Shown piece by piece: positions 203 through 21,362 of a stretch of DNA of 37,683 bases (position 1 is the first letter of the stretch; each line of letters begins with the position of its first letter). This DNA comes from an uncultured Elusimicrobiales bacterium (GTDB lineage Bacteria; Elusimicrobiota; Elusimicrobia; Elusimicrobiales; Elusimicrobiaceae): assembly GCA_944324685.1 (NCBI GenBank), contig CALUXG010000010.1, positions 1 to 37,683 of the forward strand. The letters are read 5' to 3'. The notes under the pieces were generated by a model that was not told where the DNA came from, ran no database searches, and was given only the letters and a program-made list of their open reading frames with translations. A program made the position numbers and the translations under genes.

Positions 203-338
203 TTGCAAGCAAGAAAGCAAGAAAGTGAGCAAATAAGTAAGCAATAGGAAGGAAGGAAGGAAGGAAGGAAGGAAGGAAGGAAGGAAAAAATAAAATAAAT
301 AAATAACAGGAAGGAAGTAAACACATAAGCAAGCAAAG
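203..338. repeat. Tetranucleotide repeat tract with (GGAA)10 core
   Basis: The core at 247-286 is ten perfect copies of GGAA. It is flanked on the left by degenerate AAGC/AAGT-type units (203-246) and on the right by AAAT units, two more GGAA-like units and AAGC units (287-338). Frames across it give only repetitive Pro-Ser-Phe-Leu peptides and no plausible gene. It lies between the terminator of the PAS gene and the promoter at 108-135. Confidence 0.85.
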
Positions 339-365: not shown

Positions 366-401
366 AAAAGAAAAAACGCGGAGCGGAAATTCCGCCCCGC
401 G
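366..401 (-). terminator. Intrinsic terminator of the PAS-repeat gene
   Basis: A GC-rich stem (377-386 paired with 392-401) has its only non-Watson-Crick pair at 382/396, which is a U-G wobble in the minus-strand RNA. It is followed on that strand by U6, one C and U5 (376-365). It sits 20 bases after the stop codon at 421. Confidence 0.85.
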
Positions 402-420
402 CACATTATACGTCGGCAAA

Positions 421-3400
421 TTATTTCTTTTTCCGTACGCCAATCAGTCCGTATCCCTCCACGGCGCCTTTAATGTCTTTCATCAAAAACACATCCCACG
501 CCGTGGGAATGAACTTGCCGTGTTCATCGGCAACGTCCAACGTAACTTGGAAAGCGTTGCCGGAAGCGTTCTTGGCGCTGACGGCAAACATATCGCGGCT
601 GCTGTCTGCGCGGCGGATAAACTCGTCAAAAAACTCCCGTTTATCCACCGTTTGAATGCGACGGCCGGTAAAAGCCAAAAACACATTATTGGCATAGCGG
701 ACGCGGTATTGCAAATCCAGCACCACGGCCGGCAAGTCCACATATTCCAGCGTGTGAATAAAACTCTGAGAAGTCTCCCCCAGCGTTTTACTGGCTTCGC
801 GCAGTTCAATGCGCAAACTCAAAATACGCGACATAATGCCTATTAATTCTTCCGCGCCTTCTTCAAAGTGGGCTTTAGGTGCGCGCGCGGCAAAACACAA
901 AGCGCCCGCCACCTTGCCGCCGACATAAAGCGGCGCGGCAATCAGCGAGCCGAAGTTTTTCTCTTTGTGAATACAGCGCTTGCAGTTTGTATTGCCTAAA
1001 TCGGCAAACACCACCACATTATCGTCGCGCACGTCAAAGAGGCATTCCTCCACGGGAAACACCATATATCGTTCAATGGTAAACGGATTGGGAGTGGTGT
1101 AAATGACCGTCATTTCATCCGGATTGCTCTCGCGGAAACGCATGACAATGCCTACATCGGAATGGAAGACCTGTTTGCCAAACTCTAAGATTTTATCCAC
1201 CTGTTCAGTGATGGTGGATTTATTTTCATTGCTGATGTCGTAAAGCTGACGTATATGCTGTTCGTGTACGCGCCGATCGGTAACGTCGCGCAGCCAAAGC
1301 ACCAGTTCTTCCTGTCCGTTTATCGGCGTACAAACCGCATCAAAATAATGACGCTTGCCTCCGTATTCCCAATCAAATTCAAAGGTTGTATTGATACCCA
1401 CGCTGGAGGCTTCTTTAAGCGCAAAAATTATTTTGGATGCAGCGTCTTCCGGCCAGTATTGTGCCGGTTTTTTATCCAAGAACAACGCTTGCGCCTGCTC
1501 CTGCCCCAAGTATGAAAGATTGGAATTCACTTCCAGTACCCTGCCGTCTATATCCGTCTTCAAATACAATCCGGGCAGAGACTGGCGCACGCTGCGCAGC
1601 TCCAGCGCTTCGCGTGAAGTGTGCGACAGCCGTTCCAAAAGCGCCGACAAATCCGTTATTAACACCAACACCGTATTTTTTCCCGGGATATCCAGCTCGG
1701 TTAACGTAACGGAAGTTTCTATACGCCGGCCGTCTTTGGTAAATAAAGGCGCCCCGAAAGAAGTGCGGTTTTTTTCCGCCAAAACGTGGGCGGCATGCTG
1801 CAAAAGCTGTTGTATTTCTTCTCGGTTTTTACCGTCGGCAGAAATAAACAGATTTTCAAAAGGCATGGCGCCAAGCTCATTATGGCTGTAGCCGATCAGC
1901 TGGCTTAAAAATTTATTGCTTTGCTCCACACGGCCGAAACGTCCATCCTCATAATGGACCGACAAAACGGCCCCGTCCGTTACTTCCATTAAGGCGTTTA
2001 ACTGTGCGGAACGTTCCTGCAATATCTGCATAATCTGTTTTTGCAAAGCCATATTGCGGAAGATAAACACATAGTTGCCGTTCATCATGCGCATGGCGCT
2101 CACGCGCACGGGAGAAGTTTCCAGCCCGCTGGCCAAATAAATACTGTATTCGCGGTTTTCCAGCTCTCCCCGTTTGGACAAGGTTTTCAAGTCCTCCTCC
2201 ACCAAGGCCGTGCTGTCGGGACTGAAAAGACTTAACAGCCCCTGCCCGCGCAATTCATCAGGCTTATGCTGGCATAAAGAGCAGAACATTTCATTGCAAG
2301 AAGCTATTTTGAATTTGGGAGAACAAATGACATACGGCTCCGTATTGGGCAGCAATACCGTGGCCGGAGAAGGAGGCAGAGGCTTTTTGGACTCGGCCGC
2401 CGGCGCTGACGGCGGTTTGGGAGCGGAGGAACCGCCCCGCTCGCGGCGGTCAAGGGTTACCAAATAGTCTGCTTCCACCGTGCCGTCTTGGCGGTCACGC
2501 CGGTTAAAAGGTTCCAAAGAGACAAACAGACGTATTTTCCCTTTCCCGTGAATGCGCCCGGGGAATTTGGCCGCCGCTTTGGCAAAATCAAATACATATT
2601 CCATACGCGCGCTTTCGCCGCGGCGCAATTTGCGGCGCACGTCCAACGTCAAGGCGGGGCGAATATACACGTTGCGGTAAAAATTGCGGTCATGTTCTTC
2701 AAAATGAAACAATTCCCGCGCCGCTTTGTTCATCACGTTGATATATCCTTTGTGGTTAAGAATGAAAGCGGGCAGCAAGCCGCGTTCAAATACGTTTTTG
2801 AATTTCTCCCGCTCGCCGCGCACTTCCCGCATGGTTTTGTTAACCGCGGTAACGTCCCGCAGGAAAACGATGACAATGCGCCGGCCCAAATATTTGGAAG
2901 CCATCGCCGCAAATTCCACTTCGGCCTGTACGCCTGATTTTTTGACCAAATGCAGCTGCACCGGATCGGAAGCCCCTTCCAAACCGTTAATGACGCTTTC
3001 GTACTTGTCGCGCGCAAAAATTTGATGGTCCGCCGCCACAAAATCCAACAACGGACGGCGCATGATTTCTTCCGCCGCGTCGTATCCCAGCACTTTGCTG
3101 GCTGCTCGGTTGGCGTAAATGATTTTGTAATCCTCCAAAATCAAAATGCCTTCCCGTGCATTCTCCACCAGCAGAGAGTTCTTTTCTCCCGCTTCGCGGA
3201 TTTGTTTTTCCATTTTGGTCTTGGCGGTAATGTCTTCGGATACGTTCAACAAATAATCCGGTGTGCCGTCCGGTTTATACAGCGGCGTTTTGACTGTATG
3301 CATGATCTTGACGCCGTCGTTGGGCGTGGAAATCAGCTCCTGAGGAATATTCAATTCACGCCGGCTCTCAAACACTTTTTGATCCGATTCGCGCACAAAC

Positions 3401-5796
3401 TCGGCCTGTTCTTTCGTGATATCCGTACGGTAATTTTCTTTACCGATGACGTCCCGCGCCGCCACGCCGAACAAATCTTCACTGCGTTTATTCCAGACGA
3501 CATATTCCCCGCTGTAACGTTTTACCGACAAAGCAATGGGCAAATTGTCTACCACGTTTTGCAGGAAATTTTTGGAATCGCGTATTTCGTTTTCCTGTTG
3601 TTTACGCTGGGTAATGTCTTCGGCTATCGTCAACACCATCAGAGGCTGGCCGGCGGCGTCAAACACCGGCGCCTTGACCAAATGCAGCAGCACTTTGCGT
3701 CCGTCTTGGCGGATGTACTCTTCCTCCGGCACGTCCATGATTTCCCCACGTTTGAAAATTTCTTCCTCACGCAAATTATAGCCGCTGGTATCGTTTGGCA
3801 TGGTTAATTCGCCGGGGAACATTCTGTCGGCCGCTTTATTGTAAAAGCAGACTTGATGTTTCACGTCATAGGCATAGATTGCGACGGGCGCATTGTCCAA
3901 AATGCTTTGCTGCAGATTTTGAGCCTCCGCCAGCTTGCGCGCTTGTTCCCGCTTGTCAGTAATGTCTTCAGCAATGGAAAGCATCATGGCGGGGTTGCCT
4001 TCTTTGTCATAGACAGGCACTTTGATCAAATGAAGCAGCACCGTTTTTCCGTCGCGGCGCAAGTATTGTTCTTCCGGAATGTCCACAATATTGCCATTGC
4101 GGAACATTTCTCTTTCGCGGTCTCCGTAAAAGTCGTTTTCTTCTTTATAAATGCTTTCGTTGGGGAACAACTCAAGCGCTTTTTTATTAACGAAGGAAAT
4201 GGCCATATCCACGCCGCGCGCGTAAATGGCCAGCGGTGCATTGTCCAAAATGGCTTGCTGGAAGTTTTTGGCCTCTACCAATTTGCGTTCCTGCTCTTTT
4301 TTCTCCGTAACGTCTTCCACCATGGTAATGACGAACTCCGGATTACCCTCCACGTCCGATACGGGGATTTTAATCATATGCAGCAAACGTTTATTGCCCG
4401 TCGCCGTTACATAAGCTTCTTCGGCTATATCCAACGGTTTGCCCGACTCAAGCACTTGCGTTTCTCTGTCCAAATAACCGCTAACTTGTTCTTTTGTTTC
4501 ATGCGGCAGAGAGCCTTGCTCGTCAAAGCTGGCGTCTTCCGCTCCAAAAATTTCTTCGCACTTTTTGTTGCGCAGCAACATTTTGCCGTTTTTGGTGCGC
4601 GCATATAGACCGATAGGCGCATTGTCCACAATGGCGCTTAAAAAACTGTTGGCCGTAACGATTTCCCTTTCCTGTTCGCGTTTTTTGGTAACGTCTTCCA
4701 CAATGCTCAGCACCAAAGGCTCCGGACCGGCATGGCGCAGAGGCACTTTAATCATGTGGATTATTTTTTCACGTCCCTCTCTGTCCACATAAATCTCATC
4801 GGGATAATCCCGCATTTTTCCTTCTTCTAAAATTTTTCTTTCCCGCTCCGCGTATCCGCGCACGGTGGCGGCATCCTGCTTGGGATGGGGAGCGTTGACG
4901 CACTTTGGTTCCGTTTCGGACAGCACTTCTTGGCTTTGCTTGTTAAAAAAAGTCATGACCCCGTCTATCGTACGCGTGTAAATACCCAGAGGCACATTGT
5001 CCAGAATAGCCTGCAGCAAATTGCGCGTCTGCAGCAAATCTTCCTCCTGTGCGCGCCGGACGGTAATATCTTCGTACACAGTCAATATGGTTTGCAGCTC
5101 TCCGGCGGCGTCAAAGGCAGGCACTTTTGTTACGGACAGCGTAACTTCGCGGCCGCGGTGATTTTTGAAACTCATCTGGCTGCCGCCGCGGTTTTGCTTT
5201 TTTTCTTTGACTTCTTTGTCTAAGATTTCCAAAGCGCCGCTCAACTGCTGCGGCAGAGACTGCAGCAGCTTATGTCCGACGGCCTGCGCACTCTGTACGC
5301 CAAAAAGTTTTTCCGCCCTTTCATTCCATACCAAACACTTGCCTCGTCGGTCCTGTACGGTAAGCGCAAAAGGATAATTGTCCACAATAGACTTAAAGAA
5401 AACTTTCTCTTTGACGGCCTGCAAATATTGCGGGGCCGCGTCAAAGCTCAGCAGCGTATAAGGCGTATCCGGCAAACGCGACGCTCCGACGCTCATAAAA
5501 ACGGTTTCCACCTCTTTGGTTACCATTTCTTTGAGCAAACCGTTGCCCTGTCCTTGCTGCAGCAATTGGTTTACGTCTTGGATGGTCAGGCCGTATTTGG
5601 AAATATTGCTCCCTTTCAGCTCATCTGCGGAAAAACCGGACACGGACGCCGTACGGGTATTGGCAAACAAAATATCTCCGTTTTCATCTATCAGACAGGC
5701 CGCACTGGGCAGCAGCTCAAGCAAAGCTTGCAATTGGGTAAAAAAATCCGGCGTATTATTATTTTTAGAGAAGAAAGAAAGAATTTTATTGGCCAT
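421..5796 (-). CDS. Giant multi-PAS/GAF sensor protein without an output domain
   Basis: A 1791-residue protein built from about thirteen PAS units plus one GAF domain (about 1515-1665). PAS units begin near residues 20, 133, 258, 384, 511, 628, 744, 873, 998, 1150, 1262, 1397 and 1675. Most have the typical N-cap (LDNAP, VDNLP) and end in EDIT/EDVT plus a charged helix, the usual PAS-PAC linker. Units 3 to 6 resemble each other closely, suggesting internal duplication. A Pro-rich linker spans about 1118-1148. No histidine kinase, GGDEF, EAL, HD-GYP, methyl-accepting or DNA-binding domain follows; the protein ends seven residues after a PAS strand. No membrane segment or signal peptide is visible, so it is probably cytoplasmic. 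The ATG at 5796 is chosen because GAGGA lies four bases upstream; an in-frame extension to 5931 has no such site. The role as a sensory or scaffold protein is inferred from the domains. Confidence 0.9.
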   Translation of the reverse strand: MANKILSFFSKNNNTPDFFTQLQALLELLPSAACLIDENGDILFANTRTASVSGFSADELKGSNISKYGLTIQDVNQLLQQGQGNGLLKEMVTKEVETVFMSVGASRLPDTPYTLLSFDAAPQYLQAVKEKVFFKSIVDNYPFALTVQDRRGKCLVWNERAEKLFGVQSAQAVGHKLLQSLPQQLSGALEILDKEVKEKKQNRGGSQMSFKNHRGREVTLSVTKVPAFDAAGELQTILTVYEDITVRRAQEEDLLQTRNLLQAILDNVPLGIYTRTIDGVMTFFNKQSQEVLSETEPKCVNAPHPKQDAATVRGYAERERKILEEGKMRDYPDEIYVDREGREKIIHMIKVPLRHAGPEPLVLSIVEDVTKKREQEREIVTANSFLSAIVDNAPIGLYARTKNGKMLLRNKKCEEIFGAEDASFDEQGSLPHETKEQVSGYLDRETQVLESGKPLDIAEEAYVTATGNKRLLHMIKIPVSDVEGNPEFVITMVEDVTEKKEQERKLVEAKNFQQAILDNAPLAIYARGVDMAISFVNKKALELFPNESIYKEENDFYGDREREMFRNGNIVDIPEEQYLRRDGKTVLLHLIKVPVYDKEGNPAMMLSIAEDITDKREQARKLAEAQNLQQSILDNAPVAIYAYDVKHQVCFYNKAADRMFPGELTMPNDTSGYNLREEEIFKRGEIMDVPEEEYIRQDGRKVLLHLVKAPVFDAAGQPLMVLTIAEDITQRKQQENEIRDSKNFLQNVVDNLPIALSVKRYSGEYVVWNKRSEDLFGVAARDVIGKENYRTDITKEQAEFVRESDQKVFESRRELNIPQELISTPNDGVKIMHTVKTPLYKPDGTPDYLLNVSEDITAKTKMEKQIREAGEKNSLLVENAREGILILEDYKIIYANRAASKVLGYDAAEEIMRRPLLDFVAADHQIFARDKYESVINGLEGASDPVQLHLVKKSGVQAEVEFAAMASKYLGRRIVIVFLRDVTAVNKTMREVRGEREKFKNVFERGLLPAFILNHKGYINVMNKAARELFHFEEHDRNFYRNVYIRPALTLDVRRKLRRGESARMEYVFDFAKAAAKFPGRIHGKGKIRLFVSLEPFNRRDRQDGTVEADYLVTLDRRERGGSSAPKPPSAPAAESKKPLPPSPATVLLPNTEPYVICSPKFKIASCNEMFCSLCQHKPDELRGQGLLSLFSPDSTALVEEDLKTLSKRGELENREYSIYLASGLETSPVRVSAMRMMNGNYVFIFRNMALQKQIMQILQERSAQLNALMEVTDGAVLSVHYEDGRFGRVEQSNKFLSQLIGYSHNELGAMPFENLFISADGKNREEIQQLLQHAAHVLAEKNRTSFGAPLFTKDGRRIETSVTLTELDIPGKNTVLVLITDLSALLERLSHTSREALELRSVRQSLPGLYLKTDIDGRVLEVNSNLSYLGQEQAQALFLDKKPAQYWPEDAASKIIFALKEASSVGINTTFEFDWEYGGKRHYFDAVCTPINGQEELVLWLRDVTDRRVHEQHIRQLYDISNENKSTITEQVDKILEFGKQVFHSDVGIVMRFRESNPDEMTVIYTTPNPFTIERYMVFPVEECLFDVRDDNVVVFADLGNTNCKRCIHKEKNFGSLIAAPLYVGGKVAGALCFAARAPKAHFEEGAEELIGIMSRILSLRIELREASKTLGETSQSFIHTLEYVDLPAVVLDLQYRVRYANNVFLAFTGRRIQTVDKREFFDEFIRRADSSRDMFAVSAKNASGNAFQVTLDVADEHGKFIPTAWDVFLMKDIKGAVEGYGLIGVRKKK

Positions 5797-5909: not shown

Positions 5910-6488
5910 TCAGCGCACAGCATGACGGCAAGTGATTTGAGATCCCACGAAAAACCGCTGATTGCGTTTATACACGCAAGACACCAGCGTAGAGCTATGT
6001 TCAGCGTCCGCGGCAGGCAAATAACAATCTATGCGCTTGCAGTCATACGTTTCTCGGCATTGGGGAAAAGAGGATGAAGGAAAGTCGACCAAATACCAAG
6101 AAAATTCCAAATTATAATTTAACGCTTTCAGAAAAGAAGCACAATCGGGCGGCATATTGGCCGGACATTGAGGTTGGGGGCTGACGTTTTGGCGTTCCAC
6201 CCGCTGCTGCAGCAGAGTATATTCCTGCGTATTGGCTGGGCGGCCCTGCACCATATACACGTCAAAACAGGAAAAGCCATCCTCCTCTTTGCGTTTGCAT
6301 TGGTATTGGGTCATGATGTCTCCGTCAGGGCAGGTATCTTTAACCTGTTCCGCCTCCGTGCTTAAATAATAAGGCGTTTCCCGCTCGGTGCGGACGCGGT
6401 AACGGGGCGGTTTGCCGGCCGTCTGTTCTACGGACGCACAACCGAAAAACAACAAACAAAACAGGCAAAAAATGGGACGAATTTTCAT
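5910..6488 (-). CDS. Cys-rich lipoprotein of unknown function
   Basis: A 192-residue protein that starts with a classical lipoprotein signal: a basic N-terminus, a hydrophobic stretch and the lipobox LFFGC, with C17 as the lipidated residue. The mature part is polar and holds ten further cysteines, including C53, C64, C74, C108, C116 and a cluster at 144-155, which suggests disulfides in an exported protein. The ATG at 6488 is chosen because it places the lipobox correctly; an in-frame start at 6587 would overlap the end of the pilin gene and bury the signal. No good ribosome binding site is seen. It lies 77 bases after the pilin-like gene on the same strand and is probably co-transcribed with it. 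I do not recognise the family. The gap to the PAS gene downstream is 113 bases. Confidence 0.75.
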   Translation of the reverse strand: MKIRPIFCLFCLLFFGCASVEQTAGKPPRYRVRTERETPYYLSTEAEQVKDTCPDGDIMTQYQCKRKEEDGFSCFDVYMVQGRPANTQEYTLLQQRVERQNVSPQPQCPANMPPDCASFLKALNYNLEFSWYLVDFPSSSFPQCRETYDCKRIDCYLPAADAEHSSTLVSCVYKRNQRFFVGSQITCRHAVR

Positions 6489-6565
6489 GTTTACAGCATA
6501 GCAGAAGAAACAGCTGCCCGTCAAACAAAACCATTCATTAAAATTTCCAAAGATCAGCCTAAGCC

Positions 6566-7132
6566 TTACAAGTTTACGCGGTAGCATTCGCGTTTGTCAT
6601 GTTGGCATTGAACCGGTTGGCGGGAAGAAGCGATGCTTAAACAAAAACTGCGGTCTTTATCCGTCATAGAAGGATCGTCCGATGTACAAAAAAAATCGCC
6701 TGTTTTTTCATCAGGCGTATAGCCGCGGCCAAAAGTTACCAAAGACAAGCGGAAATTATATCCCATTTTTTTATATTGATAAAATGCATGGCCCATACTT
6801 TGAATAATTGTATCTTCTTCATTAACAAACAAAGTGCCGTCGCACCAACTGTCTCTGTTTGAGCAAGAACCATAACCTTCTCCAGAACAATAAAAACGAT
6901 ATTCGCGCGTTCCGTAAGCCTGCAAGTAACTGCTTAAATCCATGCATTTGGTATTGCCTGTATTCATAACATAAATCTCCCGTCCCTCTTTAATTTGCTT
7001 AAACACGGGAAGGAGGCGCATAATACGCGCTTTTGTTACGGCTTTTTGATACTGAGGCAGCGCAATGGCCGCCAAAATGCCAATAATAAGCACCACTACT
7101 AACAATTCTACAAGCGTAAAACCTTTTCTCAT
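6566..7132 (-). CDS. Type IV pilin-like / pseudopilin protein
   Basis: A 188-residue protein beginning with a class III signal peptide: a short MRKG leader followed by FTLVELLVVVLIIGILAAIA, the invariant Glu at position +5 of the mature chain and a hydrophobic helix about 20 residues long. Prepilin peptidase would cut after the Gly. The C-terminal part (about residues 30-188) is the globular head, rich in Cys (CxxH/CYR near the end), which may form disulfide loops. The ATG at 7132 is supported by AGGAAG six bases upstream; an in-frame upstream extension to 7282 would bury the leader and is rejected. No pilus assembly gene is nearby, so this is an orphan pilin gene. Whether it forms a pilus, a type II secretion pseudopilus or a DNA-uptake fibre cannot be told from sequence alone. 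Confidence 0.92.
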   Translation of the reverse strand: MRKGFTLVELLVVVLIIGILAAIALPQYQKAVTKARIMRLLPVFKQIKEGREIYVMNTGNTKCMDLSSYLQAYGTREYRFYCSGEGYGSCSNRDSWCDGTLFVNEEDTIIQSMGHAFYQYKKMGYNFRLSLVTFGRGYTPDEKTGDFFCTSDDPSMTDKDRSFCLSIASSRQPVQCQHDKRECYRVNL

Positions 7133-16062: not shown

Positions 16063-17091
16063 CTAAATCCGCTCCAAAATTTTTTGCACCAGACGCGGCA
16101 AAGCATATTTCTTTACGTCTTTTTCCGCCACGCGGATAAAACCCTCAGGTGGACGGGCAGAAAGGGGAACCTTTACTGTATAAAACCACGCGTAAATAAT
16201 GCGGTGGGACAGTACGTGTTTAATGGGGCCGGCGTGCAGGCGGGGGGATTTACGGCTGAAATATTTACAGCAAAAAGCGGTTTTTTCAAGTTCTTTCTCC
16301 ATTAGAGGAGCAGTGCTTTCCAGAAGAGGAGGCTCATACAGTCCGCGCCAAATATCCCGCCCTTCACGGCGGTGCAGCCAAGTATAGACTCCTTGCCTTA
16401 CATATATATAGGAAAAGAAACGTTTGGACGGCGGAATTTTTGCCGCACGCACGGGAAACTGTTCCACCCGCCCAGTTTTATAGGCCGCACAACAACGACG
16501 AAAGGGACAAACGCCGCAATCCGGAGAGAACGGCACGCATTGCAGCGCTCCAAAGTCCATTATGGCCTGATTATAATCGTCGGGACGGTTTCTGTCCAAA
16601 AGTTTTTGCGCCAGCTCCGCCAACTGTTTTTTGCCTGCCGTGCCGTCCGCCGGCGTTTCTATGCCAAAAATCCGCGCCAACACGCGCTGCACATTGCCGT
16701 CCACTGCGGCATAGGGCATTTTGTAGGCAAAAGAACATATGGCCGCCGCCGTATAGTCTCCCACGCCTTTGAGTGCGCGCACCCCTTCATAAGTGGAGGG
16801 GAAAACCCCGTTCATGCTCTGCGCCGCTTCATGTAGATTGCGCGCACGGGTGTAATAGCCAAGACCTTCCCAGTATTTGAGCACCTCGTCCTGTGAGGCC
16901 GCGGCTAAAGACCGCACATCCGGAAAACGCCTGATAAAACGCAAAAAATAATTATATCCTTGGGCGACGCGGGTTTGCTGCAGGATGATTTCAGAAATCC
17001 ATATTTTATAGGGGTCTTGGGTATCCCGCCAAGGCAAATGGCGTTTATGCAAGCTGTACCAAGATAAAAGCGTGGCAGAAAAAGATTTCAT
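16063..17091 (-). CDS. mutY: A/G-specific adenine glycosylase MutY
   Basis: A 342-residue DNA repair enzyme that removes adenine mispaired with 8-oxoguanine. The catalytic Glu is E34 (SEIILQQTRV), the helix-hairpin-helix is ALKGVGDYTAAAI (106-118) and the catalytic Asp is D131 in VDGNVQRV. The four iron-sulfur ligands are C185, C192, C195 and C201 with the exact C-x6-C-x2-C-x5-C spacing. The C-terminal part (about 225-342) is the NUDIX-like 8-oxoG recognition domain with the conserved HVLSHR at about 285-290. Length is normal. No Shine-Dalgarno is seen before the ATG; TAAAAT lies six bases upstream. Confidence 0.97.
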   Translation of the reverse strand: MKSFSATLLSWYSLHKRHLPWRDTQDPYKIWISEIILQQTRVAQGYNYFLRFIRRFPDVRSLAAASQDEVLKYWEGLGYYTRARNLHEAAQSMNGVFPSTYEGVRALKGVGDYTAAAICSFAYKMPYAAVDGNVQRVLARIFGIETPADGTAGKKQLAELAQKLLDRNRPDDYNQAIMDFGALQCVPFSPDCGVCPFRRCCAAYKTGRVEQFPVRAAKIPPSKRFFSYIYVRQGVYTWLHRREGRDIWRGLYEPPLLESTAPLMEKELEKTAFCCKYFSRKSPRLHAGPIKHVLSHRIIYAWFYTVKVPLSARPPEGFIRVAEKDVKKYALPRLVQKILERI

Positions 17092-17304
17092 GGTTTTATT
17101 TTACTATTTATCACAAATCAAAAACAGACCGCAAATTCACGCATCATTTTGCTATTATTTGTGTGTTTTATTTTTCAGCTCCAACTCATTTTTGCACATC
17201 TTTTTGCTTTTGTTTTTTCAAAAGCAGCGTAAATTTTAACAAAAAAAGTTTTAAGCATTTTTCCTGTTTAATTTTATTGTTCGCAATTTTATGGTCCGAA
17301 ATAT

Positions 17305-17354
17305 TATAAAAGAGGCAATTTTTTCTCACAAAGCCTCTTATAAGGCTTATTTTT
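17305..17354 (+). terminator. Terminator-like hairpin overlapping an alternative stem
   Basis: AAGCCT (17331-17336) can pair with AGGCTT (17343-17348) and is followed by ATTTTT, a small intrinsic terminator on the plus strand. The same left arm can instead pair upstream: AAGAGGC (17310-17316) with GCCTCTT (17333-17339). The two folds exclude each other, as in attenuators. No promoter that would transcribe it was identified with confidence. Confidence 0.4.
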
Positions 17355-17446
17355 GAATTTAGATTAAATTATTTTTTTATTATCAGACTCAAAATTAACA
17401 TTAAAAAACCTTATTTCTCGTCTAAGAAGACACTTTTGAACAACTT

Positions 17447-17512
17447 TTGACATATAAACACATATAATTGACATATATTGACTTATGTCAAAAAATTTTT
17501 TACTATATGTCA
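17447..17512 (+). promoter_or_regulatory. Operator cluster and promoter upstream of the 17565 gene
   Basis: TTGACATATA occurs at 17447-17456 and 17468-17477, the palindrome TTGAC-N4-GTCAA at 17478-17491 and the inverted half-site TATATGTCA at 17504-17512. A sigma70-type promoter is embedded: TTGACT (17478-17483), a 17-base spacer and TACTAT (17501-17506). The palindrome covers the -35, the expected place for repression. The sites are seen directly; their regulator is unknown. Confidence 0.6.
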
Positions 17513-17564
17513 TGCGCCTGTGCAAATCAGTGTGAATAAGCTCTGTACACGGGGAGGGAAACTA

Positions 17565-18218
17565 ATGGAAGATCCTATGGAAAAGAAAGCAAAAATACGC
17601 TTCAAATTTCGCACCGGAGAAGAATTTGAAGCTGAAGGAAATCCCGATTTCATTGAAAAACAGCGAACGGAATTTTTACTTTTAATCAACAAATACTCTT
17701 CCGCCGCCAAGCCCGCTGTACCGCAGCCCGCCGTACCTCCTTTTCGGCATGCCGAAAACGGAAACTCTTTTTCTATTTCTCAGCCTCAGTCCGCATTTTC
17801 TCAAGCTCACGCCGTCCATACGGAAACACGGCCGCCTTTTCCAACGCCCTCCGCTTCCGAAACACGGCTTTGGGAAGAAATCGTAAAAACGGCCGTTCCT
17901 TACGTCATTCTGCGCCGAAAACACCGTCTGCTTACACCGGAAACGGCAGCTTTGCTGCTTATGGCAGCCGCTAAAACGCTGTTAAACATGACAAAGGGAT
18001 ACAGCGCTTTACATTTGGCCAAGTCTTTAAGTAAATCCGGATACGGGGGGGAACGTTTAGACCGCATTTTGGCTTCCGAAATGTTGCAAGGCCGCGTAAA
18101 AGCCTACGGAAGCAAACGTTCGCGCTTCTATATGCTGTCGGACGAAGGTTTTGCCAAAGCTTATGTGCTGGCGGAAAAAATAGCCTCCGAGCGTGGATCG
18201 CTAAACGGCACATATTAA
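17565..18218 (+). CDS. Unrecognised protein with a probable C-terminal winged helix
   Basis: A 217-residue protein I do not assign to a family. Residues 1-45 form a small alpha/beta unit (KIRFKFRTGEEFEAEG, then a helix ending in EFLLLIN). Residues about 46-105 are a Pro/Ser/Gln-rich linker. Residues about 105-217 are helical and finish with a segment that looks like a winged helix (helix, helix, then a basic hairpin RVKAYGSKRSRFYMLSDEG), suggesting nucleic acid binding. The ATG at 17565 is decided by GGAGGG six bases upstream; an in-frame extension to 17478 would run through the promoter. It stands alone between two long non-coding stretches and behind an operator cluster, so autoregulation is a reasonable guess. 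Confidence 0.72.
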   Translation: MEDPMEKKAKIRFKFRTGEEFEAEGNPDFIEKQRTEFLLLINKYSSAAKPAVPQPAVPPFRHAENGNSFSISQPQSAFSQAHAVHTETRPPFPTPSASETRLWEEIVKTAVPYVILRRKHRLLTPETAALLLMAAAKTLLNMTKGYSALHLAKSLSKSGYGGERLDRILASEMLQGRVKAYGSKRSRFYMLSDEGFAKAYVLAEKIASERGSLNGTY

Positions 18219-18306
18219 ATTATTCTCACATCCCCCATTTCCGCCATACTCCAAAACGAATGTCATAATAAGCGGCCAAGAGGACAAAAAAACCTCGGAC
18301 AACCTT

Positions 18307-18399
18307 CTTCCGCCATGGGCTAAATGAGTGCCATCATAAGAGGAATTGCGCAGTCCCCTGCAGAATTTACCTTCTGCCATAGGCTAAAATGAGTGCCAT
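18307..18399. repeat. Direct repeat pair A
   Basis: Two 28-29 base copies (18307-18334 and 18371-18399) share CTTC, GCCAT, GGCTAAA and GAGTGCCAT with few changes. Their starts are 64 bases apart. Confidence 0.8.
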
Positions 18400-18468
18400 A
18401 GTGAATGGGGTACCCATCCATCTTTTGGCAATTTCTCAAAGCTCTAAACATCTCCTGTAAAAAGCCTC

Positions 18469-18493
18469 CATTGAAAGGGGCTTAGATTTTCAA
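18469..18493. terminator. Terminator-like hairpin
   Basis: A seven-base stem (18472-18478 with 18487-18493) with one G-U pair. On the minus strand it is followed by a run of U from the A5 at 18469-18473; on the plus strand by AGATTTT. It could end a transcript from the AT-rich region on either strand. Confidence 0.4.
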
Positions 18494-19265
18494 TTATCAA
18501 CTTCCTATATATAATTTCCTAGACAATTACAAAAATATACTTCATTTTATTATGTTGTTTTCATTTTTTTGAAAATCCAAAAATATGATAATTAGAATTA
18601 GATATTTTAATTTTGAAAATACTAGGCAAGCTAGGAATAGTATTAATTTTTACAAATATTCTTATAAAATAATCTGTAATAAAAACAGAAAAGTCAACAA
18701 AAAGGCCAAAAGGGGGACTATTTGTCTGGCTACAACAACTAACGATAATAAATATTATGTAAAGTAAAACGAAGAAAACAAGAAAAAATATGAGTTAATA
18801 ATCATTATAATAAAATTTTTATTTTTTATTAAATTTCAAATATTTTTCTATATAAAATATCAAGTAATATTATATTTTTATAAGTAGCAAATGAAATATC
18901 TTTTTTTACAAAAAAATACATCTAGGTATTTCTAAAATCCAAGTAATAAAAATCTTAAAATTTACTTTATATTTTCATATGACCTTGTTTATAAAACTAC
19001 AACTATTTTTAATAAAACAAAAATTAGGCTAATTTTGATAAAAACAAAAACAGACATTGTTTTGAAAATGCCTTAAAACAAAAATGGGGTATATAGGATA
19101 TGGGGATTTTCGTTATAGGGCATTTTAAGCAATCAAAATTAATGATAAATTTGCATAAATTATTTTTTGTACACCTTTTTCATCCCTTCTCCGTCCAAAT
19201 TCTGCTTATTGTTACAAAATAACTACGGCTGTATCACTCAAGCTTTCTGACGGCTCCTTTACATT

Positions 19266-19357
19266 GCCTCAGAGAGCGAGATAACGGCCGATTTGGAGAT
19301 TAATAAATACAGACCCTCCTCTCTCTTTATTCTGCCTCAGAAAGCGCTGATAACGCC
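19266..19357. repeat. Direct repeat pair B
   Basis: Two copies (19266-19288 and 19334-19357) share GCCTCAGA, AGCG and GATAACG with single-base changes. Their starts are 68 bases apart, close to the spacing of pair A. Confidence 0.7.
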
Positions 19358-19444
19358 GTTATACCAACAAGTTTTAGATATATAGACCTTTTGCAGTTCT
19401 GCATGCAGCAATAAAAATAAAACCAAAAGTATGTTATAAATACT

Positions 19445-19479
19445 CTGCCGTTTCTGCCGTTTCTGCCGTTTCTGCCGTT
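19445..19479. repeat. Tandem nine-base repeat (CTGCCGTTT)4
   Basis: Four head-to-tail copies of CTGCCGTTT, the last ending in TTA. The core CTGCCGTTA also occurs twice at 7325-7333 and 7361-7369. Confidence 0.85.
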
Positions 19480-19677
19480 ATTATTTTTATACCGTCAATT
19501 AACCAAAAAAAAGGGAGGGGAAAAGATATAAAGATATCCTCCAGAGAAAACAAATTTTACGATTTCCGCCACATAATCATTGGGCGTTGTTCAGAAGGAA
19601 AGTATAAGACGGCAACAAATATGCCCCCCTTTTAAGGATTTTCTATGGGGTATTATGTTAGGGGGAATATTTAATGT

Positions 19678-19707
19678 AAAAAAACCGGCCCCCAAAAAGG
19701 GGGCCGG
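19678..19707 (-). terminator. groEL terminator
   Basis: A perfect nine-base GC stem (CCGGCCCCC/GGGGGCCGG) with an A5 loop, followed on the minus strand by U7 from 19684-19678. It lies 21 bases after the groEL stop. Confidence 0.93.
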
Positions 19708-19727
19708 CTATGAGCGTAACGGCTAAA

Positions 19728-21362
19728 TTACATCATGCCGCCCATTCCCCCCATTCCGCCCATCGCGGGATTGTGGGCCTGCTCCTTTTCCGGAGCATCT
19801 GCAACCAGTGCTTCGGTCAACAGCACCGTGGCAGCAATAGAAGCGGCATTTTCCAAGGCGGTGCGAACCACTTTAGCGGGATCCACCACGCCGGCCTTAA
19901 TCAAATCACCGTATTGGCCTGTTTCAGCGTCAAAGCCATCAGACTGGCCTTTCATGGACAAGACTTTGTCCACCACCACGGCACCGTCCAAACCCGCGTT
20001 AACGGCAATTTGGCGCAGCGGAGCCGTCAAGGCTTTGCGTACGATGGCAATACCGGTCTTCACGTCTTCATTGTCGGCTTTAATGCCGTCCAACGCTTTC
20101 TGGCAGCGGGCCAAAGCCACACCGCCGCCGGCCACAAGACCTTCTTCCACGCCGGCTTTGGTGGCGTTTTTGGCGTCTTCCACTTTGGCTTTTTTGGCCT
20201 TCATTTCCGTTTCGGTCGCCGCACCGACGCTGATGACGGCTACGCCGCCGGAAAGTTTGGCCAAACGTTCCTGTAATTTTTCTTTATCGTAATCGCTGGT
20301 GGAATTTTCAATTTGTTTGCGAATTTGCTCGGCACGCTGGGATATGGCCGTTTTATCTCCTTTTCCGCTGACGATGGTGGTGTTTTCTTTATCCACTACG
20401 ATGCGGTCGGCCTGGCCGAGCATGGCAATTTCGGCTTTGTCCAGTTTCATGCCGCGCTCTTCGCTGATGACTTCGCCGCCCGTCAGGGTCGCGATGTCTT
20501 GCAGCATTTCTTTGCGTCTATCGCCAAAGCCCGGAGCCTTGACCGCACAGCCTTTAAGCGTACCGCGCAATTTATTGACCACCAAAGTAGCCAACGCTTC
20601 ACCGTCAACGTCTTCGGCAATAATGACAAACGGGCGGCCGCTCTGTACGATTTTTTCCAAAATCGGCAGCAGATCATTCATGGAAGAAATCTTTTTGTCG
20701 GTAATAATGAGGTAGGCGTTTTCCAATACGCATTCCATTCTGTCCGGATCCGTTACAAAATACGGCGAAATATAGCCGCGGTCAAACTGCATTCCTTCCA
20801 CCACGTCCAGTTTGGTTTCGGCGCTTTTTCCTTCTTCTACCGTAATGACTCCTTCATGCCCCACCTTTTCCATCGCCTCGGCAATCAGTTCCCCGATGAC
20901 GCGGTCATTGGAAGAAATGGTCGCAATTTGGGCTTTTTCTTCTTTGGTTTTGACGGGTTTTTGCATTTTGGCCAGCTCGCCTTTTACCGTTTCCACGGCC
21001 TGCTCAATGCCTTTTTTTACCAAAGTTGGATTGGCGCCGGCAGTAATATTTTTAATTCCTTCGCGCAAGAGCGCATCGGCCAAGACGGTAGCCGTCGTCG
21101 TACCGTCCCCCGCGACGTCATTGGTTTTGGCGGCCACTTCTCGGATAAGCTGCGCACCCATATTTTCAAATTTATCTTCCAATTCAATATCTTTGGCGAT
21201 GGTAACACCGTCGTCAATAATCAGCGGAGAACCAAATTTTTTCTCCAGCACGACGCTGCGGCCCTTAGGGCCCAAAGTAACTTTGACGGCATTGGCCACT
21301 TTTTCAATGCCGGCTTTCATTTTGGCGCGTGATTCATCACCGAAAACAATTTGTTTTGCCAT
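19728..21362 (-). CDS. groL: Chaperonin GroEL
   Basis: A 544-residue 60-kDa chaperonin of normal length. It begins [20 protein letters not shown], contains the ATP-site segment [12 protein letters not shown], the catalytic-region [13 protein letters not shown] with its Asp, and [20 protein letters not shown], and it ends in the typical GGM repeat tail. With GroES it folds cytosolic proteins in an ATP-driven cage. AAGGAG lies ten bases before the ATG. It is 22 bases after groES in one operon controlled by the promoter and CIRCE at 21730-21783. The C-terminal A-H-N-P-A linker before the GGM tail is unremarkable. Confidence 0.99.

What the first reader, a model, noticed from the sequence alone, without database searches (positions are those of the whole stretch)
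421..5796. PAS-only giant without an output domain
About thirteen PAS units and one GAF domain make up nearly all 1791 residues, with no kinase, cyclase, phosphodiesterase or DNA-binding part and no membrane anchor. Sensory PAS proteins normally end in an output module. It may be a scaffold or a sensor that acts on a separate partner. The near-identical framework of units 3 to 6 implies recent internal duplication.
Basis: partly seen in the sequence, partly recalled or inferred. Interest (0 to 1): 0.6.

Follow-up and report, generated by a model that had tools for sequence, protein, structure and literature searches.

The report
Output-less giant PAS sensor array
A gut bacterium (Candidatus Avelusimicrobium) and its close relatives pool nearly all of their standard PAS sensor domains into one 1,800-residue protein that has no signalling enzyme attached, which suggests that it passes its signals to a separate partner, possibly a kinase that has itself lost its sensor.

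Summary
The gene is on the minus strand (424-5796) and encodes 1791 aa: 13 PAS units, one GAF domain, no output domain and no membrane segment. It is not a truncated kinase: a strong terminator follows the stop codon, dN/dS is 0.05-0.07, and complete orthologues in four genera all end in the same PAS unit. It is an Elusimicrobiaceae gene: 77 of 295 phylum genomes and 4 of 90 genera carry it, all in this family. In nine giant-bearing genomes searched, 69 of 70 S-box PAS hits lie in this protein; two larger-genome sister genera without it spread 26-28 hits over 9-13 proteins. In three of the four giant-bearing genera a soluble 250-aa histidine kinase without a sensor is the syntenic orthologue of a GAF-PAS-kinase in those sisters. 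My best explanation is a cytoplasmic sensor hub acting in trans on soluble kinases. The naked kinase is the favourite partner, but the genus with a short giant lacks it, so this is inference. "Recent duplication" is only partly right: units 3-6 are 36-50% identical, and the array varies from about 10 to 13 units across the genus.

The parts
424..5796 (-). PAS-GAF giant, 1791 aa; 13 PAS units and one GAF, no output domain, no obvious TM segment (stop codon 421-423)
5416..5751 (-). PAS unit 1 (residues 16-127), least conserved unit
5035..5415 (-). PAS unit 2 (residues 128-254)
4651..5034 (-). PAS unit 3 (residues 255-382)
4267..4650 (-). PAS unit 4 (residues 383-510)
3931..4266 (-). PAS unit 5 (residues 511-622); units 5-6 are the pair present or absent across the genus
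3571..3930 (-). PAS unit 6 (residues 623-742), 50% identical to unit 5
3190..3570 (-). PAS unit 7 (residues 743-869), most conserved unit; W768 invariant in four genera
2815..3189 (-). PAS unit 8 (residues 870-994)
2446..2814 (-). PAS unit 9 (residues 995-1117)
2365..2445 (-). Pro/Ala-rich disordered linker (residues 1118-1144), length varies between species
2011..2364 (-). PAS-fold unit 10 (residues 1145-1262), missing in one species
1597..2010 (-). PAS unit 11 (residues 1263-1400)
1255..1596 (-). PAS unit 12 (residues 1401-1514)
793..1254 (-). GAF domain (residues 1515-1668) with C1585, C1605, C1608 and H1610 invariant in the genus: candidate metal or redox site
424..792 (-). C-terminal PAS unit 13 (residues 1669-1791); the protein ends on its last strand, with no DIT/helix exit
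376..402 (-). Intrinsic terminator-like hairpin (12 pairs, 9 G-C) followed by a T run, about 19 bases after the stop codon
5910..6587 (-). Conserved neighbour c3: Cys-rich protein with signal peptide or lipobox; found beside the giant in nearly all genus loci where that flank could be read (19, more)

Best explanation
The gene encodes a soluble cytoplasmic sensor hub. A chain of PAS domains plus one GAF, joined by signalling helices, binds ligands or cofactors and/or dimerises. Having no effector of its own, it passes its state in trans to separately encoded soluble kinases. Shown here: the architecture, the absence of an output domain, family-wide conservation under strong purifying selection, the pooling of almost all of the genome's S-box PAS domains in this one protein, and a conserved 250-aa histidine kinase (HisKA-HATPase_c, almost nothing before HisKA) that is the syntenic orthologue of a GAF-PAS-HisKA-HATPase_c kinase in two sister genera that lack the giant. 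Inferred: that this naked kinase is a partner (split sensor kinase). Alternative soluble partners are the HisKA_3 kinase of contig C46 and the REC-HisKA kinase of contig C28. The signals are unknown; the GAF Cys/His set suggests metal or redox sensing.
For: No output in Pfam, NCBIfam or AF2. Orthologues at 44-85% identity in the genus, 1431-1810 aa, all ending in the same PAS; also in three other genera of the family. dN/dS 0.05-0.07 over the whole gene, lowest in the GAF (0.01 in three of four pairs) and unit 7 (0.02-0.03). 69 of 70 S-box hits in nine giant-bearing genomes lie in this protein, against 26-28 hits over 9-13 proteins in g10 and g11. The naked kinase is found in g1, g9 and g12; its orthologues in g10 and g11 have GAF+PAS before HisKA, next to the same outer-membrane-type gene, and the sensor is absent up to the DVT/HisKA junction. 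The closest relatives of unit 7 found outside the family lie inside histidine kinases. Top structural matches are multi-PAS signalling proteins: DosP, PpsR, bacteriophytochromes.
Against: No partner is encoded beside the giant. Genus g13 keeps a short giant (1196 aa) but has no naked-kinase match (one genome, 92% complete). The giant's GAF shows no detectable similarity to the GAF of the g10/g11 kinases, so a simple fission of that kinase is not supported. Co-occurrence of giant and naked kinase across one family has little statistical power. The C46 HisKA_3 kinase keeps a weak PAS of its own. The naked kinase could instead be controlled by its operon neighbour of 172 aa.
Confidence: 0.5

Rival explanations
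1. Scaffold: the PAS array is mainly a multivalent protein-protein platform that gathers envelope or pilus regulators, with little or no ligand sensing.
For: Unit number varies (about 10 to 13) while the core units 7-9 and GAF-PAS13 stay fixed, as expected if part of the array is spacing. The genus-wide neighbour is a secreted Cys-rich protein, and in other clades secreted proteins with a shared N-terminal motif lie nearby.
Against: Invariant residues in unit 7 (W768, H833, K836) and the Cys/His set of the GAF look like ligand or metal sites rather than spacers. No membrane anchor. Pilin and secreted-protein genes are very common in these loci, so neighbourhood is weak evidence.
Confidence: 0.2
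2. The giant controls a non-kinase output in trans (for example the RR-GGDEF protein of contig C5, the PP2C/Ser-Thr kinase pair of this window, or a transcription factor), and the naked kinase is unrelated to it.
For: An RR-GGDEF protein and a PP2C (275 aa) beside a Ser/Thr kinase (769 aa), none with PAS/GAF in the Pfam scans, exist in this genome. g13 keeps the giant without the naked kinase.
Against: Nothing links these genes to the giant specifically; most PAS proteins in prokaryotes act through histidine kinases (PMC10468136).
Confidence: 0.2
3. Decayed remnant: a former multi-PAS histidine kinase that lost its kinase domain and is being degraded.
For: Closest unit-7 relatives found outside the family are in PAS kinases.
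Against: Intact ORF in most of the family with dN/dS 0.05-0.07, terminator directly after the stop, the same C-terminal PAS across four genera. Only 3 of about 65 genus genomes show internal stops, in draft assemblies.
Confidence: 0.03

Closest known systems
Multi-PAS sensor histidine kinases (for example cyanobacterial HKs with up to 19 PAS; PMC10468136)
   Same: Tandem S-box PAS units joined by DIT/signalling helices, with GAF among them
   Different: Those end in HisKA-HATPase_c (or REC); here no catalytic module is present in any orthologue examined
Effector-less PAS proteins: short LOV proteins (PMC4335406, PMC5314338) and photoactive yellow protein
   Same: PAS sensor without a fused output, presumed to act on partners
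   Different: Those are single-domain photoreceptors of about 125-180 aa; this is a 13-PAS array of 1791 aa with no sign of being a light sensor
PpsR, DosP, bacteriophytochromes (top structural matches)
   Same: PAS or PAS-GAF arrays with helical connectors
   Different: These carry an output module (HTH, EAL, HK or similar) and have far fewer PAS units
NifL and DivL (recalled): PAS proteins that act in trans on a partner regulator or kinase
   Same: A PAS-bearing protein controls a separate regulator
   Different: NifL and DivL keep a kinase-like region; this protein has none

Membership tests
PAS domain superfamily (Pfam CL0183; TIGR00229 S-box) | Profile match above curated cut-off, and PAS fold | tested here: met
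   PAS_4 239.5 bits against 23.1; S-box 339.8 bits against 22.9, 12 stretches; AF2 PAS folds
GAF domain (PF01590) | Profile match above cut-off | tested here: met
   30.3 bits against 22.4, residues 1531-1662
Sensor histidine kinase | HisKA/DHp and HATPase_c domains | tested here: not met
   No HisKA or HATPase_c in the window protein or in six orthologues from four genera; none in the AF2 models
c-di-GMP enzyme or DNA-binding PAS regulator | GGDEF, EAL, HD-GYP or HTH domain | tested here: not met
   None in Pfam or NCBIfam above cut-off; equivalog models of such proteins match only through their PAS parts and score far below cut-off
Chemoreceptor / membrane PAS sensor | TM segment, HAMP or MCP signal domain | tested here: not met
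   Maximum 19-residue hydropathy 1.6, within the GAF; no HAMP or MCP match
Split (two-protein) sensor kinase, as a way of working | Separately encoded sensor-less kinase exists in the same genome | tested here: met
   254-aa HisKA-HATPase_c protein, L062:4686-5447
Split (two-protein) sensor kinase, as a way of working | Sensor and kinase present or absent together | tested here: inconclusive
   Both in g1, g9 and g12; in g10 and g11 no giant and a fused GAF-PAS-kinase; g13 has the giant but no naked kinase
Split (two-protein) sensor kinase, as a way of working | Physical interaction and control of kinase activity | not testable with these tools
   Needs co-folding of the pair or biochemistry

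The most novel reading that the evidence does not exclude
During genome reduction in gut Elusimicrobiaceae, sensing was centralised: kinases shed their GAF/PAS sensors while one output-less 11-13 PAS + GAF protein became a shared trans-acting input hub for one or more naked kinases. This would be a split many-input sensor kinase, with inputs and catalysis on separate proteins.
Probability: 0.3. Interest if true: 0.75.

Novelty: new variant of a known kind. Interest (0 to 1): 0.55.

Why it matters
PAS proteins are expected to carry or touch an effector, and PAS numbers are expected to follow genome size with the domains spread over many kinases. Here a 1.4-Mb genome keeps nearly all of its S-box PAS domains in one output-less protein, conserved over a family of gut bacteria, while a kinase in the same genomes has lost its sensor. 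If the two work together, it would be a natural example of inputs and catalysis uncoupled into separate proteins, and a way to ask how long PAS chains integrate signals without a covalently attached output.

Tried and rejected
Truncated kinase: rejected (terminator at the stop codon, same C-terminus in four genera, low dN/dS). Hidden output domain: rejected by Pfam, NCBIfam and AF2. PYP-like photoreceptor for PAS13 (NCBIfam photo_yellow 4.4e-05, 23.6 bits against a cut-off of 143): rejected as a PAS-fold echo. Nitroreductase and SpoVT_C matches: below cut-off. Direct fission of the g10/g11 GAF-PAS-kinase into giant and naked kinase: not supported, because the giant's GAF profile finds no match there. 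Apparent 549-aa version of the naked kinase in some species: in the two loci read it is the upstream 295-aa outer-membrane gene separated from the kinase by one stop codon, not a fused sensor. c3 as a universal partner: rejected, because it is beside the giant only in the window's genus and not in the other genera. Phage origin of unit 7: no match. Literature searches for PAS-only or output-less PAS arrays found nothing like it in the open-access set. The Elusimicrobium minutum genome paper is not held.

Full report
What is there. The finding's coordinates hold a single ORF on the minus strand, from the ATG at 5796 to the TAA at 421-423, 1791 residues (the given plus-strand frame of the same interval is broken by stops). 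Pfam and NCBIfam see only PAS families and one GAF; S-box alone scores 339.8 bits over 12 stretches. Reading the S-box and DIT landmarks gives thirteen PAS units and a GAF between units 12 and 13. AlphaFold2 models over two overlapping pieces that cover the whole protein (mean pLDDT 80.5 and 77.4) show PAS folds, one GAF fold, long connecting helices and one disordered linker, and nothing else; the chain ends on the last strand of PAS13. Foldseek finds multi-PAS signalling proteins such as DosP, PpsR and bacteriophytochromes. No obvious TM segment is present.

Is it a whole gene? A 12-pair G+C-rich hairpin with a T run lies about 19 bases after the stop codon (376-402). Full-length orthologues from 18 other loci of the genus are 1431-1810 aa and end in the same PAS with a conserved W-[DE]-V...G-Y signature. 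dN/dS is 0.05-0.07 for four species pairs, lowest in the GAF and unit 7; synonymous sites are saturated in three of these pairs, so the values are approximate. Only three genus genomes show stops inside the match, in draft assemblies.

Who has it? The window is one whole contig of a 1.40-Mb MAG. Matches in genome contigs are Candidatus Avelusimicrobium and uncultured Elusimicrobiales (taxonomy). In the family, 85 of 90 genomes match, in four of six genera. In a 295-genome sample of the phylum, 77 match, all in this family. The two genera without it (g10, g11; one genome each) have larger genomes, 2.2-2.3 Mb.

Array history. Units 3-6 are 36-50% identical to each other, against about 20-30% between most other units. 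That is clear duplication, but old: where the residue is the same, the codon matches only about 37-55% of the time. Unit number differs within the genus: the window's clade has 13 PAS, L037-L043 lack one unit, L044-L046 lack two in the unit 4-6 region, and L047 lacks unit 10 as well. The unit tree puts the window's unit 6 with the unit-5 group, with several unresolved forks. So the array grows and shrinks on the scale of species groups.

Conserved parts. Unit 7 is the best conserved (64-97% identity across the genus; W768 is invariant in four genera), followed by the GAF. In the GAF, C1585, C1605, C1608 and H1610 are invariant in the genus and C1585/C1605 also hold in g9 and g12; g13 has lost them. 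This spacing suggests a metal or redox site; that is inference.

PAS bookkeeping. In the window's genome all nine S-box hits lie in this protein. Over nine giant-bearing genomes in total, 69 of 70 do. In g10 and g11, 28 and 26 hits lie in 9-13 different ORFs; of those scanned here, two are hybrid kinases. Below-threshold PAS exist elsewhere, for example in the C46 HisKA_3 kinase (PAS_4 E 0.005), so the claim is about S-box-level PAS.

Kinases of the genome. Six histidine kinases were found: a dCache kinase and a REC-HisKA kinase (C28), a Cache-HAMP kinase (C14), a 326-aa kinase with a hydrophobic N-terminus (C25), a 254-aa kinase with no sensor (C5) and a HisKA_3 kinase next to a LuxR-type regulator (C46). 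In the 254-aa kinase HisKA begins about 16 residues from the start. It is present in g1, g9 and g12. In g10 and g11 its best relatives are 534-539 aa with GAF, a PAS-like segment and a DVT junction before HisKA. They sit next to the same outer-membrane-type gene (own and g10 copies match at 7e-18), and the alignment shows the sensor missing up to that junction. So the lineages with the giant (g13 aside) have a kinase with its GAF-PAS removed, and the lineages without the giant have it fused.

Interpretation. An output-less sensor array plus a sensor-less kinase in the same cytoplasm, and their reciprocal distribution, make a trans-acting sensor hub the most economical reading. It stays unproven: g13 keeps a short giant without that kinase, the giant's GAF does not resemble the lost GAF, and nothing shows physical contact. 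The HisKA_3 kinase is a soluble kinase that I could trace in all four giant-bearing genera; its best relatives in g10 and g11 lie in 651- and 821-aa ORFs that also carry S-box PAS, but at 30-31% identity orthology is not established.

Neighbourhood. The upstream gene c3 (5910-6587, minus) is a Cys-rich secreted or lipoprotein-like protein with no Pfam match. It stays beside the giant in the genus although its orientation flips and all other flanks change, which hints at a functional link within the genus only. In g9, g12, g13 and some genus members, secreted proteins with an 'SSPYG/YYPxP' type N-terminus lie near the giant. Pilin and secreted-protein genes are abundant in these loci, so I give this little weight.

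Verdict. A real and unusual protein family: PAS domains of a known kind in an array with no output, restricted to one bacterial family. The specific partner is the open question.

Noticed in passing
window 5910-6587 (minus) and L014-L048, L079-L081: Cys-rich secreted/lipoprotein-like family c3 stays adjacent or very close to the PAS giant in the genus although its relative orientation flips between clades and all other flanking genes differ; no Pfam match.
   Followed up: partly
L062:4686-5447 (minus), L100:2856-3599 (minus); compare L095:1635-3251, L096:4777-6378: A conserved 250-aa histidine kinase with almost nothing before HisKA is the syntenic orthologue of a GAF-PAS-kinase in two larger-genome sister genera: sensor loss at the DVT/HisKA junction.
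   Followed up: yes
L069-L077 and L044-L046, L080, L081, next to the giant: Secreted proteins sharing an N-terminal motif (ALSSPYG, VTYYPxPxxxY) lie near the giant in four genera; how common the family is in these genomes was not measured.
   Followed up: partly
window 246-286: Tetranucleotide run AGGA x10.2, 100% match, near the contig end, downstream of the giant's terminator; possible assembly break point or phase-variable repeat.
   Followed up: no
L059 (G000 contig C28): Three-gene signalling set: dCache histidine kinase, a REC-HisKA-HATPase kinase of about 380-407 aa, and a NarL-like response regulator; a kinase ORF of that size recurs in the giant-bearing genera checked.
   Followed up: partly
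window 19444-19479: Perfect 9-base tandem repeat TCTGCCGTT x4 just outside the Cpn60-like gene at 19728-21362 (minus).
   Followed up: no
window 17091-19728: Stretch of about 2.6 kb with few long ORFs between the MutY-like and Cpn60-like genes, with short AT-rich tandem repeats at 17270 and 17447.
   Followed up: no
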